A DNA stretch of 27,493 bases from a virus. The stretch spans positions 1 to 27,493 of the IMG/VR virus record IMGVR_UViG_3300037247_000962; one strand, 5' to 3'. The position numbers were made by a program, and so were the translations under genes. Below the pieces are notes generated by a model. The model did not search any database and was not told the DNA's origin. It was given only the letters and a program-made list of their open reading frames with translations. Positions 8,458 to 26,694 of this stretch are shown here, piece after piece (positions within the stretch are counted from its first letter, which is position 1; each line of letters opens with the position of its first letter).

Positions 8458-9444
8458 TCAGTAGCTTATCCCCGGCGCCAGCGGCGGCAGGCTTTCAACC
8501 ACGCGGTCGCGTGGAATGTACTGCGGGTTCTCGATCTCCAGATAGCGCATGAGGTCGGTCATGTGTTTGCGCTTCTCCATTGGGTCAGCGTGTGGGTCGC
8601 GCTTCTCGGCCTGGGTGGGCGTGAGCCGCGCATAGCGGTTCTCGCGCAGTTCCAGTCTCAGTTCGATCAGGGTGTTGAACACATGGATGACCGGCCGGTA
8701 GCTGACGGTCCCATCCCCGTTGTCGTACTTCTTGGGCAGCAGCCGGTCGTTGACTTTATCCCGGCCAGCCTTGAAGTCTCGCTTGGCTTCCTTGCAGTGA
8801 ATCCCCAAATCCTCGTAGCGGTGCCAGAAGGTCTCGGGTTCGTCGCGCCCTTTCCGGCGCTCGGTAAAAATACCCTTGGCGTGCGGGTCCATGATGCGCT
8901 GGTAAATCTCTTCCTTCTTGCCCTGGTTGTCGGCGTAGCCGCCCGCCGAGAATACGTTGGGTTCCGGGCCTTCCAAAAAGTCCAAAATTTGGACATAGGA
9001 ATCAATCGTGTAAATGTCGTCGTCCTCGGGTAGCCGGCCTTTGGTGCCGTAGACGTTGGAAGGCCAATACTCGCGGTAGTACCAGTGGTCGTCGTCCGGA
9101 CTCACGGCCATCCAGAGGAAAGCGTGCGGCCGGCGCCCGTGCGGGTCAATCCCCATGTAGCGCGTCCAGTCGTAGGGAATGGGGAAAGGGTCGCACCAGT
9201 TGATGTCCACGTCAAAGTTGGGGAACACCCGCGCCCCGGAGTAGGCTTGGTTGTCAATCTCCTGCTCCTGCGCCCAGGCTTCCTTGGTGCTGTACTTCGG
9301 GCGCTCTTCCTCCTCCCAGGCTTTGTTCTTCATGGGGTCGGCGGTGTAGTGGATGCGCAGGACGCGCCCGCCAATGTCGTTCCGATAGTCTACGCAACCC
9401 GGAGGCAGCGTTGGTTTTGGCGTGACCTTCTCAAGTCCGAACAC
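8458..9444 (-). CDS. terL: Terminase large subunit, C-terminal nuclease half
   Basis: The 328-residue product begins at the linker after the ATPase and contains the RNase H-like nuclease of large terminases. LRIHYTADP (29-37) and WAQEQEID (57-64) match the segment that normally follows the ATPase. The MGIDPHG segment (97-103) carries the first catalytic Asp, with a following strand (AFLWMAVSP) as expected. The nuclease cuts concatemeric DNA at the start and end of packaging. The start is taken as the GTG at 9444; no Shine-Dalgarno sequence is visible, so it may depend on translation of the upstream frame. The stop is followed within two bases by the portal start. Confidence 0.85.
   Translation of the reverse strand: MFGLEKVTPKPTLPPGCVDYRNDIGGRVLRIHYTADPMKNKAWEEEERPKYSTKEAWAQEQEIDNQAYSGARVFPNFDVDINWCDPFPIPYDWTRYMGIDPHGRRPHAFLWMAVSPDDDHWYYREYWPSNVYGTKGRLPEDDDIYTIDSYVQILDFLEGPEPNVFSAGGYADNQGKKEEIYQRIMDPHAKGIFTERRKGRDEPETFWHRYEDLGIHCKEAKRDFKAGRDKVNDRLLPKKYDNGDGTVSYRPVIHVFNTLIELRLELRENRYARLTPTQAEKRDPHADPMEKRKHMTDLMRYLEIENPQYIPRDRVVESLPPLAPGISY
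8980..8995. repeat. Perfect 16-bp palindrome inside the terminase nuclease gene
   Basis: GTCCAAAATTTTGGAC is a perfect palindrome in the coding sequence and is almost identical to the 15-bp palindrome at the lipoprotein start near 24.13 kb. It could be a second site for the same DNA-binding protein, or a chance sequence. The codons here read through it normally. Confidence 0.35.
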
Positions 9445-13351: not shown

Positions 13352-14146
13352 TCAAAGCTCCGTGTGGTCTCCGAACCACGAGGGCGCCGTCGAGCTCGTC
13401 AGGATGATCTGGTCGGCCACGGGCTTGGCAGCGTTGTAGCTGTCCTCCGCTCCGTCTATGTGCGCGGCCTCGTCCATGATGAAGATGGTCGGGTGGTAGC
13501 TGCGCACCTGATCGGGTCCACCCGCCATGCCCTGGACCAGCGATTGATGCAGCCAAGTGAACTTGTCTGCCGGCATATCGGCAAGGCGCGAGGCTAGGGG
13601 ATACCGGCGCTGCAGCCACTCGTCTTGGCGGCTGTAGAGCGTCTTGACGTAGCCCTCCGAGCCCCGCCCGGTCACAAGCTCGTTCGACTTCTCCTGCTTC
13701 TGGGACTGGAAGATAGCCCGGACGCGCTGGTGGAACTGCGCGGCCCAGGTTGAATAGCCGGCCAAGGCCCAGGAGAGCATCATTTCGCGGCTCTTGGGGA
13801 TCCATAACAGCGGCTCCTTGACCAGCCGGGTGAAGATGATGGGGAAGTAGCGCTTGCGCGGGAATCGCTTGTAGGCGCGCGCCGGGGGATCCTTCTTGCG
13901 CCGCTCCCAGTGCTCGTCAAAGGTGAGGGTGAAGTTCTGTAGCCAGTAGAGGGGACCTGGAATCCAGACCCAATCTTGATCGGGAAGTTCATGGCGCCGA
14001 CCCTCTTCCCAGACTCCGTGTAAAATCCGGGCGATTATACCACGCTCGGCAAACTCGGAGTCAACTTGTTGTTGCTCTCCAGAGGTTAGGAGCGCCCCCT
14101 GTAGAGCGCCCTGATCTTCCGGCGCCTTTCTTTTAGTTTGCGCCAT
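13352..14146 (-). CDS. terL: Terminase large subunit, N-terminal ATPase half
   Basis: The 264 residues cover the packaging ATPase: a Walker A-like KSREMMLSW segment (118-126), in the place of the classical P-loop as in many large terminases; Walker B TIFIMDEAAHID (220-231) with the catalytic Asp-Glu pair; and motif III IILTSSTA (247-254). The protein then stops at DHTEL, where the linker to the nuclease would begin. The nuclease half is a separate gene 3.9 kb downstream (8458-9444). The motor uses ATP hydrolysis to push DNA through the portal into the capsid. The ATG at 14146 follows GGGACAAGG. The stop lies one base before the next ATG, so the gene ends cleanly rather than looking like a decaying fragment. 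Confidence 0.88.
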   Translation of the reverse strand: MAQTKRKAPEDQGALQGALLTSGEQQQVDSEFAERGIIARILHGVWEEGRRHELPDQDWVWIPGPLYWLQNFTLTFDEHWERRKKDPPARAYKRFPRKRYFPIIFTRLVKEPLLWIPKSREMMLSWALAGYSTWAAQFHQRVRAIFQSQKQEKSNELVTGRGSEGYVKTLYSRQDEWLQRRYPLASRLADMPADKFTWLHQSLVQGMAGGPDQVRSYHPTIFIMDEAAHIDGAEDSYNAAKPVADQIILTSSTAPSWFGDHTEL

Positions 14147-15490: not shown

Positions 15491-15523
15491 GCTGTGCTCT
15501 CAGCGTGTTAAGCCTAGCACAGC
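15491..15523. promoter_or_regulatory. Stem-loop between the array and the TerS-like gene
   Basis: Perfect 8-base arms GCTGTGCT (15491-15498) and AGCACAGC (15516-15523) enclose a 17-base loop, directly before the ATG at 15483. It could end or stabilise the array transcript, or act as an operator or translation control for the next gene. No T-run follows on the minus strand, so it is not a classical terminator. The 30 bases between it and the array show nothing else. Confidence 0.4.
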
Positions 15524-15553: not shown

Positions 15554-16666
15554 GTTGACGCTCGATGGTCATGCTCAATCTTTATCTCTGGCTCGCTCGA
15601 CTAGGTTGCTCAATCGTTTCTTTTGGCTCGCTCGGTTCGGTTGCTTCATCACTGATCTTGGCTCGCTCTGAGACTATGCTCAATCGAGGTAGTTGGCTCG
15701 CTCCAACCTCCTGCTCTATCTAACTATGTGGCTCGCTCTCATTCTTTGCTCAATCGGCCCTACTGGCTCGCTCTTCGAGTTTGCTCAATCGAACTTCATG
15801 GCTCGCTCGTTCTCTCCGCTCAATCATTCAGCATGGCTCGCTCGTAGGTTTCTGCCCTATCGCCCGTTGTGGCTCGTTCTGAGGCTATGCTCAATCTTCC
15901 GTGTTGACTCGCTCGAACTCCTTGCTCAAACATGACTCCTGGCTCGCTCCGTGGACTTGCACAATCACTACACATGGCTCGCTCAATACGCTTGCTCTAT
16001 CTACTTCTAGGGCTCGCTCGACTCATGTGCTCAATCTCTAGTCTTGGCTCGCTCTCGCTCCCTGCTCTATTCTGTGTTCTGGCTCGCTCTGGAAAGATGC
16101 TCGATCTCTTGTTTTGGCTCGCTTCCTACTTTTGCTCAATCCACATGCTTGGCTCGCTCGCGGGGGATGCTCAATCATGCGGGGTGGCTCGCTCCTGTTG
16201 CTCTGCTTCAACGCTTGTCATGGCTCGCTCTTGTACCATGCTGAATCTGGTGCAGGGGGCTCGCTCCTTGATTATGCTCAATCCCGTACAGTGGCTCGCT
16301 CGGTGTCTCGGCTCCATCACGTCCCATTGGCTGACGCTCAACGGCGATGCGCAATCCGGCAGGATGGCTCGCTCACTGAACATGCTCAATCAATTCCTGT
16401 GGCTCGCTCGCTTTACATGCTCGATCACTTATTTGGGCTCGCTCTGATCCGATGCTTAATCTGATGTAGTGGCTCGCTCGTGCTGACGCTCCAGTGTGAT
16501 GCCCAATCCAAAGGGGTGGCTCGCTCGGCCAGAATGCTTGATCTGGGCAGTTGGCTCGCTCTGCTGTAATGCTCAATCTCAAGTAGTGGCTCGCTCGGCG
16601 TACTTGCTCAATCAAGCTATATGGCTCGCTTTCTGCGAATGCTGCATCTGTGATCGTGGCTACTTC
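15554..16666 (-). repeat. TIGR-like guide array: about 31 units of 35 bp, two boxes and two 8-nt spacers per unit
   Basis: On the minus strand each unit reads GATTGAGCA, 8 variable bases, GAGCGAGCCA, 8 variable bases. GGCTCGCTC (plus strand) begins at 15590, 15625, 15660, 15695, 15730, 15765, 15800 and 15835, exactly 35 bases apart, and continues with rare 36-37 base steps and one 47-base step to 16658. The two boxes are related (GA-TT-GAGC and GA-GC-GAGC). All of roughly 60 spacers differ. Since 35 is not a multiple of three and the spacers vary, this is not coding. CRISPR spacers are far longer. The layout matches TIGR arrays, where each processed RNA of about 36 nt carries two short guide segments loaded onto a Tas protein. 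The end near tas is degenerate and overlaps its stop codon; the far end (15554-15580) is also degenerate. Confidence 0.92.
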
Positions 16667-17772
16667 ATCGGCCAGTTGGGGACTTCGATCTTGTGAGTGT
16701 GCCCTCCGAGCACTGCCAAGGAGTAGGCTTCCACTGGCTCCCTGCCGAAGTGTTCGATGTGCGCGACCCAGTGCCAGTGAGACAGGAAGAGTTTGACGGC
16801 CCATCGTTTCGCCCTGGCGTGAATGTGACCTGGAGGGAGCATCAGTTGGCCTTCGCCCTCCGGTACACGCTTAGGCTTGACTCCTTCTTCCCCGGCAGCA
16901 ATTCGCTCACGATATTCGTTCGCCGCTGTTGGAGTTACACAGCCAGCGTACCAGGGATAGGCGTCAGTGCCTTTTCCGATTTTCTTTGTTCGCATAACTT
17001 CCGCGGCTTGGTCTGCGAGTTCTCCCCTTTCGTTTCGCCCGATTTCGTAGGCTTTGCGTTGCAAGAGCAGCTTGCCGTAGAAGTCACTTTCCCGACCCGA
17101 TTGTTTGACAAAAGATTCTCCAATCTTCCAGCACAGAACTTTCAAGTCGGCATTCCAAGGGCGACGGGCCATGACTCTCCTGACGCCATCACGGGTCAAG
17201 TCTTGGTGTTCTCCTTTAGGCGTGGTGGTGGCCTGTCTCAGCAGAGATTGATACTTTCGGCCTGTGCGCACGGCTGCTTGAACCAGTAGCTCTTGCGGGT
17301 TTAGTTTGCCGTTTTTCTGGACAATTTCTTGGACAAGTTTGCTTGCACCTTCTTTGCCCAACCACTTGTTGGTACTATCCTGACCAGCAAACCGCCAAAT
17401 GTTTCCTGCTCTTGGACACATCGAAATGTCAATGTAGGCGAGCAAGGCTGCTGAAATCACCTTGTCAATGCCAGTGATGGTCTTGGCCCAACGTCCCACA
17501 ACGAACTGGTCGGAGTAGGCATCTAGGACTCGGTGCATACTCCGTTCCATGCGCTCAGCGTTGTCTCTGAACCAGATCAGGATTTCGTGGGGTTCCTTGG
17601 ATTTCTCCATCGCGTACACTTGGTTACTGGCTGCCTTACGGGGTTCTTGCAGAGCGTAGTAATCGTCCACAAGAAAGCGGGCTTGTTTTCTTCCCAAGGT
17701 TTTGGCTCCGAGCGCAATGTCTCGGGCCAACTTCTGCATCGGTTCTAACATCGTCGTGTTGGTGTCTCCCAT
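16660..17772 (-). CDS. tas: Tas-like protein (IS110/Nop-type RNA-guided DNA-binding protein without nuclease domain)
   Basis: Residues 1-95 form long helices, as in the coiled coil preceding Nop and IS110 C-terminal domains. Residues 99-132 (ITGIDKVISAALLAYIDI, then IWRFAGQD) match the helix-hairpin-helix core of the IS110 Transposase_20 domain. RRPWNADLKVLCWKIGESF (203-221) and PPGHIHARAKRWAVKLFLSH (313-332) are further strongly conserved blocks of this protein group. The IS110 N-terminal DEDD/RuvC-like domain is missing, and I see no HNH or other catalytic motif. The neighbouring two-spacer array makes the best call a stand-alone Tas protein of a TIGR-Tas system, which would bind short guide RNAs and find matching DNA. 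AAGGAG lies upstream of the ATG at 17772. The stop codon lies inside the first array element. The symbol is my assignment; an orphan IS110-like protein is the alternative. Confidence 0.85.
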   Translation of the reverse strand: MGDTNTTMLEPMQKLARDIALGAKTLGRKQARFLVDDYYALQEPRKAASNQVYAMEKSKEPHEILIWFRDNAERMERSMHRVLDAYSDQFVVGRWAKTITGIDKVISAALLAYIDISMCPRAGNIWRFAGQDSTNKWLGKEGASKLVQEIVQKNGKLNPQELLVQAAVRTGRKYQSLLRQATTTPKGEHQDLTRDGVRRVMARRPWNADLKVLCWKIGESFVKQSGRESDFYGKLLLQRKAYEIGRNERGELADQAAEVMRTKKIGKGTDAYPWYAGCVTPTAANEYRERIAAGEEGVKPKRVPEGEGQLMLPPGHIHARAKRWAVKLFLSHWHWVAHIEHFGREPVEAYSLAVLGGHTHKIEVPNWPMK

Positions 17773-18562: not shown

Positions 18563-19648
18563 TTACTTCCTGAGCTTGCTGTAGTGCAACAGCGGAGAGC
18601 CAGCTTCCGCCAGAGAGCGCAATACAGTAGCTGTTGTGCCCTCACGCTTGAGTCGAGACACAGAGTAGACTGACGGCTTGACCTGGACTTCGTAATCGGC
18701 TGTCGAGTAGACCAAAAAGCCCGACGCAACATAAACAGGGTCTGTTTTCTTCGTCTGTTTAACTCCGGCCCGCCGGGCCTCGATAACGTAGCTGCGAACC
18801 AGCTTACTCCAATATCGGCTAAACAGGAGCGGCGTAGCGAACACATCGGACGAGACTGCCTTGCCATCGAGAACCAGGACCGCACCGATTGCGTTGTTCG
18901 GGCGCGCTTCCTTCAATTCCTTTTCGATGGCAAGTTCACCTTTGCTCTTCACCGCTTCGACAGCGATGTAGGCAGAACCCGTGTCTACAAACTCCCAGGC
19001 TATTGTTCCGGTCGAGGTTCCCATCAGAAGTTCTCCTGATGGCGCCGTAATAAACTCAGCAGTATCGCTAACAACCATGTCTGTGAGGGTTCCGGTTGAA
19101 GCGATACCACCCGCCTGGGCGATTGCAGCCCATGTTGTATTCTGGCTGCCAGTGCCCACGCTCCCACGAACCGACGGAGAAGCCATGACACCTGAGTATT
19201 TGAACGTCACGGTTTCGCCCTTCCATCGGTTTCGCTGAGCACAAAGGACTGAAATCGGCACAGGGTCAGAGGTTGGCGGAACAATCCGGTCCTCAGAAAT
19301 CACGCGGTCCTGCTTCCCACCAGCCAGAATCTCACCAGCAAGCAGAATCAGATGCTTGCCCGAATTGTTCAGGAGCACAACCTCGTACTGGTTCGGCCTG
19401 TCCCGGCCTCGTATCAGCCCTGGTTTGATCTCTGTGACCTCGACCGTTCCGTTCTCCATGCCCTCGGCCAATGTCACGTAGTCCAGGGCTAGGCTTGGGA
19501 AGTTCGTAGGATAAACAAAGACCACTTCCATTCGTTCGTTTTGAAACGCTGCGGAATCCCCTACGCTCCACAACTCATGCCGGAAATCCCCGGCTGTGAG
19601 TGGAAACGTAAGAGCCAGCAGCAACAGCACCATCAGTAGTTTTTTCAC
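18563..19648 (-). CDS. Secreted ARPP-1-like (DUF6569) domain protein, 361 aa
   Basis: The first 20 residues are a clear Sec signal peptide (MKKLLMVLLLLALTFPLTAG). Residues 95-125 hold the family-like core, NSGKHLILLAGEILAGGKQD and a following RIVPP, then a segment ending in NRW. This pattern of ...GE...GGKQ.R...PP...RW is what I associate with ARPP-1 (DUF6569) proteins, a poorly understood domain found in several bacterial phyla. The start is GTG with AGGAGGGTG just before it. The C-terminal half is mixed alpha/beta and unassigned. A protein of this type is unusual in a phage and looks like cargo acquired from a host, possibly changing the envelope of an infected cell. It closes a run of exported proteins. 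Confidence 0.7.
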   Translation of the reverse strand: MKKLLMVLLLLALTFPLTAGDFRHELWSVGDSAAFQNERMEVVFVYPTNFPSLALDYVTLAEGMENGTVEVTEIKPGLIRGRDRPNQYEVVLLNNSGKHLILLAGEILAGGKQDRVISEDRIVPPTSDPVPISVLCAQRNRWKGETVTFKYSGVMASPSVRGSVGTGSQNTTWAAIAQAGGIASTGTLTDMVVSDTAEFITAPSGELLMGTSTGTIAWEFVDTGSAYIAVEAVKSKGELAIEKELKEARPNNAIGAVLVLDGKAVSSDVFATPLLFSRYWSKLVRSYVIEARRAGVKQTKKTDPVYVASGFLVYSTADYEVQVKPSVYSVSRLKREGTTATVLRSLAEAGSPLLHYSKLRK

Positions 19649-25338: not shown

Positions 25339-25898
25339 CAGACTATCCTCTCAATCGTGAGTCCGTAGTGGTGGAAGGCTGCCTTGAGCCTGTCCACGGG
25401 GAACCCCAGGCCGCGTAGACCCAAGACGTAGCCCACTATGTTCAACTTCTCGGTCAACTTCTTTTCCAGTTCGGTTTTGTCCCCATGACATTTCGTGCAA
25501 AGCAGTATCAGATTAGCCCTATCGTTGGGCTGGCCCAAATGCTTGTCGCACACAAACCGGAAGGGAACAATGTGATCTCCGTGCAGCTTGCAGTGGAAAC
25601 GACGCTTCTGGGTTTGCTCGCTGATACCACAGCAGGCGCAGTAGTGTTCCGAGAAGCGCAGTTGCCGGTTAGCTTCCGGCCAACTGCCGCCGCGGTAGGG
25701 CTTGGCGCCCGAGCGCTTGCGCCGATCTCCGCGCTTCTTCTTACGCTCGGACCACCGCTGCCGAAGGTGGGCCGCGCAGTGTGCGAAGGTTCCGTAACGC
25801 GCGCGGTTGCAACCCTCTGTCTTGCAGGGCTTACCAGGGATGCCCGCTCGGGCAGACGTGCGCGAACCTGTGCCCGCGGAACGATTGGCACTTCGCAT
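25338..25898 (-). CDS. HNH endonuclease
   Basis: The C-terminal half carries a recognisable HNH nuclease motif: a CxxC pair (YCACC), then a GDHIVP segment with the catalytic His, then NLILLCTKCHGDKT with the second zinc CxxC and the final His. The N-terminal part has another zinc-type pattern (CKTEGC, then AHCAAH) and a very basic linker. HNH proteins of this kind act as homing, packaging-associated or restriction-like nucleases in phages. The start is uncertain: the ATG at 25898 is chosen because earlier starts overlap the DUF5131 gene more, but its ribosome binding site is weak. The stop shares a base with the start of the MazG-like gene (TGATG). It is 8 kb from the tas gene, so a link to that system is not implied. 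Confidence 0.82.
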   Translation of the reverse strand: MRSANRSAGTGSRTSARAGIPGKPCKTEGCNRARYGTFAHCAAHLRQRWSERKKKRGDRRKRSGAKPYRGGSWPEANRQLRFSEHYCACCGISEQTQKRRFHCKLHGDHIVPFRFVCDKHLGQPNDRANLILLCTKCHGDKTELEKKLTEKLNIVGYVLGLRGLGFPVDRLKAAFHHYGLTIERIV

Positions 25899-26694
25899 AG
25901 CATTTTCCACAAAGAGACATACAGGAAAACGGAACTTGGCTCCACTCCTTGCCATCGAGGAGTATCCCCTTCTCTTCCAAGTTCGGGTCGGACCACTGTT
26001 TGAAAAAGAAAGGAACGTCCAACTCAACACAGTGGTCCCGAATTGCCCGGACGTGAACAGGGTCAATGGGACGCGCCTCCGGGCCCGACTCGCCTCCCGC
26101 AATCACCCAATCCAACCCCCTGCGGTGTGCAGCAGAGCCATCGTCGCGGCCGAGCCAAGCGGGGCCATCCCCCTTGTCGCTAAAGTCGGGCCGCGGTCGA
26201 AGGTTGACCGGACCAAGAAACGGCTCCAGACTCACGAACCGTAGAGCAGCGGGAATATCCAGCAGTTTGGGGATGCGCTCGTCGGCCATCTCCTGGTTCT
26301 CAACCGAGACTCCGAACCAAACGTGAAGCCAGGGTAGTTCTGGTATCCAAGAGGGGAGGCATTCCATGATTCGCTCGGGTCGCTTGGTGAGAATCATGTA
26401 GATGTGCTGCGGGGTTTTTCTTATGACTTCCCACGCATCGGCTCTCCAGTTGTCGGCCTCTTCAATGAAGAAGTCCGACCAGGAGCAGGTGAAGATGCGC
26501 ACGCCATCCTTCCATTTCTTTAGGGGCGCGTAGAACGTGGGATCCTTGGCGCGGGTTACGGTGTTGAAGTCCCTCTCGTACTTCGTCATGTCGCGCTCGG
26601 CGTAGCAGTGGGCGCAGCCAGGGGAAACCTTCTTGCACCCGTACCACGGATTCCAGGTCGCGTCAGCCCATCGAATGTGCGTAGTTTTTCCCAT
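25831..26694 (-). CDS. DUF5131 / phage Gp37-Gp68-like protein with a Cys-rich C-terminal extension
   Basis: This 287-aa protein matches the DUF5131 family, formerly called phage Gp37/Gp68, which is common in phages and mobile elements. The family signature is present: a WNPWYGC segment near residues 14-20, followed by cysteines 20, 27 and 30 in a CX6CX2C arrangement typical of the family. Later family motifs are a TKRPER segment, a GVSVENQ segment, a LEPFLGP segment and a GGESGPEARP segment. The enzymatic reaction of the family is not established; a radical-SAM-like iron-sulphur fold has been suggested from the cysteine pattern. Family members usually end soon after a DGxxW segment. Here about 35 further residues follow, with five cysteines and two histidines, suggesting an added zinc-binding tail. 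That tail overlaps the following HNH gene. Confidence 0.9.
   Translation of the reverse strand: MGKTTHIRWADATWNPWYGCKKVSPGCAHCYAERDMTKYERDFNTVTRAKDPTFYAPLKKWKDGVRIFTCSWSDFFIEEADNWRADAWEVIRKTPQHIYMILTKRPERIMECLPSWIPELPWLHVWFGVSVENQEMADERIPKLLDIPAALRFVSLEPFLGPVNLRPRPDFSDKGDGPAWLGRDDGSAAHRRGLDWVIAGGESGPEARPIDPVHVRAIRDHCVELDVPFFFKQWSDPNLEEKGILLDGKEWSQVPFSCMSLCGKCYAKCQSFRGHRFAHVCPSGHPW

What the first reader, a model, noticed from the sequence alone, without database searches (positions are those of the whole stretch)
15554..16666. Non-coding array of 35-bp units with two conserved boxes and two 8-nt variable spacers: a TIGR array
Seen directly: about 31 units at an almost perfect 35-bp period, each GATTGAGCA-N8-GAGCGAGCCA-N8 on the minus strand. 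Spacers all differ while boxes are strongly conserved. The period is not a multiple of three and no frame survives, so selection is on DNA or RNA rather than protein. Known: TIGR arrays of TIGR-Tas systems have alternating repeats with paired short spacers and give about 36-nt dual-guide RNAs. The match in period, spacer pairing and adjacent gene is close. Few such loci are described and this one is long.
Basis: partly seen in the sequence, partly recalled or inferred. Interest (0 to 1): 0.97.

Follow-up and report, generated by a model that had tools for sequence, protein, structure and literature searches.

The report
Phage TIGR-TasA dual-guide RNA array
A virus of bacteria or archaea carries 31 tandem units that look like the coding part of short two-part guide RNAs, next to the gene for the protein that would use them to grip chosen DNA sites without cutting; this is a clear, fairly long example of the recently described TIGR-Tas systems, not a new kind of system.

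Summary
On the minus strand at 16666-15559 lie 31 units of about 35 nt: edge repeat GAGCGAGCCA, 8-nt spacer A, loop repeat GATtGAGCA, 8-nt spacer B. Repeat columns carry about 1.5-2 bits (less in the apical triplet of the loop repeat), spacers about 0.1 bit, and no spacer recurs. The array starts inside the stop codon of a 370-aa gene (17772-16660) and ends in a 3'-truncated edge repeat. That protein is a solo Nop-domain Tas protein (TasA). A profile of its family hits solved TasR (E 2e-27) and TasH (E 2e-17), and its AlphaFold model (pLDDT 93) matches TasH, TasR, IS621 and Nop5. At least 62 of 80 related viral loci have the same kind of array. Their edge repeats covary as in the TasR-tigRNA structure. 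Membership in TIGR-Tas (dual-repeat, TasA type) is well supported; tigRNA processing and targeting here are inferred. Family data add two leads. Arrays are replaced much faster than tas (TasA 100% identical, 2 shared units). One relative's unit matches 16/16 an excisionase-like gene of another prophage in the same host genome (0.06 such matches expected over six units), suggesting non-cutting interference with rival elements. New member of a known kind.

The parts
16660..17772 (-). tasA: solo Nop-domain TIGR-associated protein, 370 aa, no nuclease domain
   Evidence: Profile of 49 relatives hits TasR 9mty (E 1.8e-27), TasH 21kl (E 2.1e-17), IS621 (E 1.4e-5); PHROG 4285 'transposase' E 4.6e-36; AF2 pLDDT 93.3, pTM 0.90; fold matches TasH Z 18.9, TasR 17.5, IS621 14.5, Nop5 8.8
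15559..16666 (-). TIGR dual-repeat array, 31 units of about 35 nt
   Evidence: self-identity 0.67 at lag 35
16657..16666 (-). first, 5'-truncated edge repeat (GAAGTAGCCA); overlaps the tasA stop codon TAG (16662-16660)
   Evidence: same arrangement in 29 of 38 arrays lying directly downstream of tas
15559..15563 (-). last, 3'-truncated edge repeat GAGCG (array end)
   Evidence: many relatives end the same way
16480..16491 (-). odd edge GAGCGTCAGCAC inside the array (after unit 5), resembling the array end GAGCGTCA
   Evidence: interpretation as an internal end or junction is inference
16302..16339 (-). odd edge GAGCGTCAGCCA followed by a degenerate unit (spacer ATGGGACGT, loop GATGGAGCC, spacer GAGACACC)
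15491..15523 (-). GC-rich hairpin after the array (GCUGUGCU...AGCACAGC) without a U-run; possible weak terminator or boundary
   Evidence: MFE -26.6 kcal/mol for 86 nt, z -1.38

Best explanation
This is a dual-repeat TIGR-Tas locus of the TasA (nuclease-less) type in a viral contig with phage-type genes. Steps and their status: (1) tasA and the array are read in one direction, probably as one transcript, because the array begins inside the tasA stop codon (shown as anatomy, transcription inferred). (2) The transcript is cut in the middle of each edge repeat (GAGCG^AGCCA) into about 31 RNAs of 35 nt, AGCCA-A8-GATtGAGCA-B8-GAGCG (inferred from truncated array ends and the 36-nt tigRNAs of studied systems). 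(3) A TasA dimer holds one such RNA; the edge halves pair with each other (supported by covariation) and the loop repeat binds the other protomer. (4) The RNA opens a 16-bp DNA site, spacer A pairing one strand and spacer B the other (established for TasR and TasH, inferred here). (5) Having no nuclease, TasA would hold the site and block transcription, replication or integration, most likely of competing mobile elements (inferred; one suggestive natural target in a relative).
For: Array anatomy. Tas identity by sequence profile and fold. At least 62 of 80 relatives carry a 34-39-nt (mostly 36) dual-repeat array at the gene. Edge repeats across the family (GAGCGAGCCA, GAACGAGTCA, GAGTGAACCA, GATCGAGACA, GAATGAATCA, GATTGAAACA) keep pairs 3-8 and 4-7 in 14 of 14 cells, with changes on both sides, and 0 of 500 shuffles match. 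Loop repeats vary mainly in the apical triplet GAT-NNN-GCA. Role: the KBS 96 prophage array unit 2 gives TAAAAGCA+GAATCGAA, an exact 16/16 match with no gap in another prophage of the same genome. The match sits at the start of an excisionase/Cox-like HTH gene beside a repressor and an integrase. Expected number of exact matches over all six units with gaps 0-2 is 0.064. Arrays turn over quickly while tasA stays constant, as expected of guides that follow changing targets.
Against: No transcript or small RNA data. No target found for this array: within the window none with fewer than 3 mismatches, no more than controls. No excess of targets over control orientations among about 80 related contigs. 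Halomonas NO4 gave no exact host target for its seven units. The KBS 96 match is single, post hoc as to its place, and not in this virus. No canonical terminator follows the array.
Confidence: 0.93

Rival explanations
1. TIGR-TasA locus, but its job is within the virus itself: RNA-guided regulation of its own genes or help to its own integrase through DNA bending, not interference with rivals.
For: TasA has no nuclease, so self-binding is tolerable; the published TasR structure bends DNA nearly 180 degrees and the authors propose such roles.
Against: No self target with fewer than 3 mismatches in the 27-kb contig; the target orientation is no more frequent than control orientations. The contig is linear and may be a fragment, so this is not exhaustive. 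Fast unit turnover fits changing foreign targets better than fixed own genes.
Confidence: 0.2
2. A degenerate tandem satellite or noncoding repeat with no guide function, next to an IS110-like transposase gene.
For: Pfam and PHROGs call the gene family a transposase.
Against: The same two-box architecture sits at tas in 62 of 80 relatives with different box sequences that covary. The protein lacks the N-terminal DEDD domain of IS110 (only about 24 residues precede the coiled coil). The boxes were not found widely elsewhere in IMG/VR.
Confidence: 0.02
3. A CRISPR-like array served by another effector.
For: Regular repeats with unique spacers and rapid turnover.
Against: Repeats are 9-10 nt and spacers 8 nt in two alternating classes; no cas gene found among the window proteins searched; the neighbour is a Nop-domain protein.
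Confidence: 0.01

Closest known systems
TIGR-TasA systems (Faure et al. 2025, PMC12045711), e.g. Flavonifractor plautii FpTIGR
   Same: Solo Nop-domain protein without nuclease; downstream dual-repeat array; truncated edges at both ends; shared box motifs; unit about 36 nt
   Different: Unit is 35 nt because the loop repeat has 9 nt (GAT-NNN-GCA); 8-nt rather than 9-nt spacers; 31 units against the usual 5-15; two internal array-end-like junctions; no clear terminator
TIGR-TasR (TaTasR, PDB 9mty)
   Same: Nop fold (Z 17.5), sequence profile E 1.8e-27, edge repeat pairs supported by covariation
   Different: TasR carries an N-terminal RuvC nuclease and UG/CCA boxes; here GA(N)/(N)CA boxes and no nuclease
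TIGR-TasH (Salicola phage CGphi29; PDB 9vzx, 9w04, 21kl)
   Same: Nop fold (Z 18.9), viral home, 16 nt of spacer in all
   Different: TasH carries an N-terminal HNH nuclease; absent here
IS110/IS621 bridge-RNA recombinases
   Same: Shared Nop-like domain (Z 14.5)
   Different: No DEDD domain, and an array of units instead of a single bridge RNA
Box C/D snoRNP Nop5
   Same: Distant fold match (Z 8.8)
   Different: No fibrillarin or L7Ae-type partner seen; guides DNA in the relatives, not RNA methylation

Membership tests
TIGR-Tas, dual-repeat array | Two alternating 8-12-nt repeats separated by short (about 9, here 8) nt spacers, repeated many times | tested here: met
   Edge 10 nt, loop 9 nt, spacers 8 (few 9) nt, 31 units
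[quoted passage not shown]
   GAAGT-AGCCA at 16666 and GAGCG at 15563-15559
TIGR-Tas, dual-repeat array | Adjacent gene for a Nop-domain (Tas) protein | tested here: met
[quoted passage not shown] extra edge pair supported by covariation | tested here: met
   GA...CA in both repeats; edge pairs 3-8 and 4-7 covary across the family
TIGR-Tas, dual-repeat array | Typical (not defining): rho-independent terminator after the array | tested here: inconclusive
   GC-rich hairpin 15523-15491 without U-run, z -1.38
TIGR-Tas, dual-repeat array | Processing to about 36-nt tigRNAs bound by Tas | not testable with these tools
   Predicted 35 nt from truncated ends; no RNA data
TIGR-Tas, dual-repeat array | Tandem-spacer targeting, A on one DNA strand and B on the other | tested here: inconclusive
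   No target for this array; one exact candidate for a relative's array
TasA subtype | Nop domain without fused HNH or RuvC nuclease | tested here: met
   Only about 24 residues before the coiled coil; no nuclease family hit
IS110 transposase | N-terminal DEDD/RuvC-like domain | tested here: not met
   Model residue 25 aligns to IS621 residue 125; nothing corresponds to the N-terminal domain
CRISPR-Cas | Single repeat class of about 25-36 nt and Cas proteins | tested here: not met
   Two alternating 9-10-nt repeats; no cas match among the window proteins searched

The most novel reading that the evidence does not exclude
TasA arrays are fast-changing guide libraries with which temperate viruses silence, without cutting, the early or excision genes of rival prophages in the same cell. 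The locus here is such a library, and the KBS 96 prophage unit that matches an excisionase-like gene of a co-resident prophage is a first natural TIGR target.
Probability: 0.3. Interest if true: 0.85.

Novelty: new member of a known kind. Interest (0 to 1): 0.48.

Why it matters
TIGR-Tas is a recently described kind of RNA-guided DNA-targeting system whose natural targets and, for nuclease-less TasA, whose function are open questions. This locus is a clean, long, viral example of the TasA type. The family around it gives evidence on both questions: arrays that change almost wholly between viruses with identical TasA, and a testable candidate target in a rival prophage of an isolate (Acidobacteriaceae KBS 96).

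Tried and rejected
Targets in the window itself: none with fewer than 3 mismatches; target orientation no more frequent than controls. Targets of 938 distinct units among 0.9 Mb of related contigs: target orientation 2/54/624 hits at 0/1/2 mismatches against 1-2/51-62/580-628 in controls; the exact hits for L066 unit 21 appear to be an indexing artefact of the script. IMG/VR scans for two unit targets gave 94 and 13 stretches; for the first (checked) the gap lengths are mixed and contexts unrelated to the KBS 96 site, so chance. Halomonas NO4 (7 units; six searched without gap, one with gaps 0-2): no exact host match; one 15/16 match in a chromosomal region, within chance. Six KBS 96 units: only unit 2 matches. 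Rfam: no family in the window. The window protein has no match in named phages or plasmids. A close sister virus was sought with the portal-like protein: only one 43% relative. CRISPR, satellite and IS110 readings rejected as given under rivals.

Full report
Observation. The minus strand from 16666 to 15559 holds 31 units, edge GAGCGAGCCA - A(8) - loop GATtGAGCA - B(8). Most units are 35 nt, a few 36. Self-identity at lag 35 peaks at 0.67; shuffled sequences peak at 0.39-0.46. Edge columns carry 1.5-2.0 bits; loop columns 1.6-2.0 bits except the apical triplet (0.5-1.25); spacer columns mostly below 0.2 bits; no spacer is repeated. The boxes occur in the window only in the array.

Ends. The first repeat is a 5'-truncated edge that overlaps the tasA stop codon (TAG at 16662-16660, followed by CCA). 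The last is a 3'-truncated edge, GAGCG. Relatives show the same ends: in 29 of 38 arrays directly downstream of tas the stop codon runs into the truncated first edge, and many arrays end in GAGCG. If both truncations mark the processing point, the cut lies at GAGCG^AGCCA, giving RNAs of 35 nt here and 36 nt in most relatives, as measured for studied systems. Two internal edges, GAGCGTCAGCAC (16491-16480) and GAGCGTCAGCCA (16339-16328), resemble the terminal GAGCGTCA and may be old array ends joined together (inference). After the array there is a GC-rich hairpin but no U-run.

Protein. The gene at 17772-16660 encodes 370 aa. Pfam gives only a weak IS110 match and PHROGs a family called transposase. 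A profile of 49 relatives finds TasR (9mty, E 1.8e-27), TasH (21kl, E 2.1e-17) and IS621 (E 1.4e-5) among solved structures. The AlphaFold model (mean pLDDT 93.3, pTM 0.90) matches TasH (Z 18.9), TasR (Z 17.5), IS621 (Z 14.5) and archaeal Nop5 (Z 8.8). Only about 24 residues precede the coiled coil, so there is no RuvC, HNH or DEDD domain: TasA. Compared with the short (about 270 aa) relatives it has insertions near residues 140-200 and 275-310, shared with other long members.

Family. One IMG/VR scan gave 80 related loci. At least 62 have a clear dual-repeat array at the gene, mostly of period 36. Edge and loop repeats share GA at the start and CA at the end. Across the family, edge positions 3-8 (G-C, A-U, U-A) and 4-7 (C-G, U-A) covary in every distinct edge consensus that was counted: 14 of 14 cells paired, 7 cells with changes on both sides, 0 of 500 shuffles as good, and none of the slid registers as good. 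Only seven distinct consensus sequences, chosen by me as the clear ones, went into that count. This is the kind of edge pairing described for the TasR-tigRNA structure. Further relatives lie in bacterial and archaeal genome records, including the isolates Acidobacteriaceae KBS 96 and Halomonas NO4. The window protein has no match among named phages or plasmids; another family member finds the known TasH phage Salicola CGphi29 and two other phages weakly.

Array dynamics. Viruses with near-identical tas genes have very different arrays. L061 and L062 have identical TasA over 274 aa and 86-96% identical DNA in the best-aligned flanking blocks, but share 2 of 24 and 14 units. L059 and L066 (99.6%) share none exactly. 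L052 and L054 (97.3%) share 4, in the same order. Whole A+B pairs are kept or lost together.

Targets. From the published cut geometry (8-nt 3' overhangs) I infer that a target reads A then rc(B) on one strand. No excess of such sites over control orientations was found in the window or in related contigs. In the genome of KBS 96, whose prophage carries TasA and six units, unit 2 matches exactly, 16/16 with no gap, at 6329962-6329977. The other five units do not match. Under a second-order Markov model built from 160 kb of that genome, 0.064 exact matches were expected over all units and gaps, 0.021 without gap. The site lies near the 5' end of a small HTH gene (PHROG 66 excisionase/regulator, Cox-like) in another prophage with integrase, repressor, capsid and head protease genes. 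That prophage is on the same scaffold about 0.5 Mb from the TasA prophage if the chromosome is circular. This fits interference without cutting, since a nuclease directed there would break the host chromosome; but it is one match, its location was judged after the fact, and Halomonas NO4 gave none.

Verdict. Membership in TIGR-Tas (dual-repeat array, TasA type) is well supported by every defining sequence and structure feature that could be tested. RNA processing and two-strand DNA binding follow from work on relatives (PMC12045711). The biological role is open; interference with rival mobile elements is my first choice at roughly 50%. The confidence of 0.93 in the best explanation applies to its identity as a TIGR-TasA guide array, not to that role. 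The find is a good new member of a known kind rather than a new kind; whether this very locus is listed in the published supplementary table could not be checked.

Noticed in passing
L085:5977-8103: A TasA homolog interrupted by an intein-like insertion (Hint domain, LAGLIDADG and intein splicing matches), 709 aa in all.
   Followed up: partly
window 8458-9444 and 13352-14146 (-): The large terminase looks split: an ATPase-like part and a nuclease-like part lie about 3.9 kb apart with other genes between (judged from sequence by eye; no family match); no Rfam intron found.
   Followed up: no
L061, L062, L063, L064 arrays: TIGR arrays turn over almost completely between viruses whose TasA is 98-100% identical; whole A+B unit pairs are kept or lost.
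   Followed up: yes
L112:1501-1516 (KBS 96 genome, 6329962-6329977): Exact 16-nt A+rc(B) match of the KBS 96 prophage TIGR unit 2 at the start of an excisionase-like gene of another prophage in the same genome.
   Followed up: yes
L090:5259-5285 and L092:8768-8794: The same lone edge-N8-loop unit in two contigs without an array; probably chance or a shared relic.
   Followed up: partly
window 25831-26694 (-): DUF5131 family protein (PF07505, E 2.8e-73; phrog_2045), of unknown function, carried by the virus.
   Followed up: no
window 18563-19648 (-): ARPP-1 domain protein (PF20208, E 4.1e-39) upstream of tasA on the same strand.
   Followed up: no
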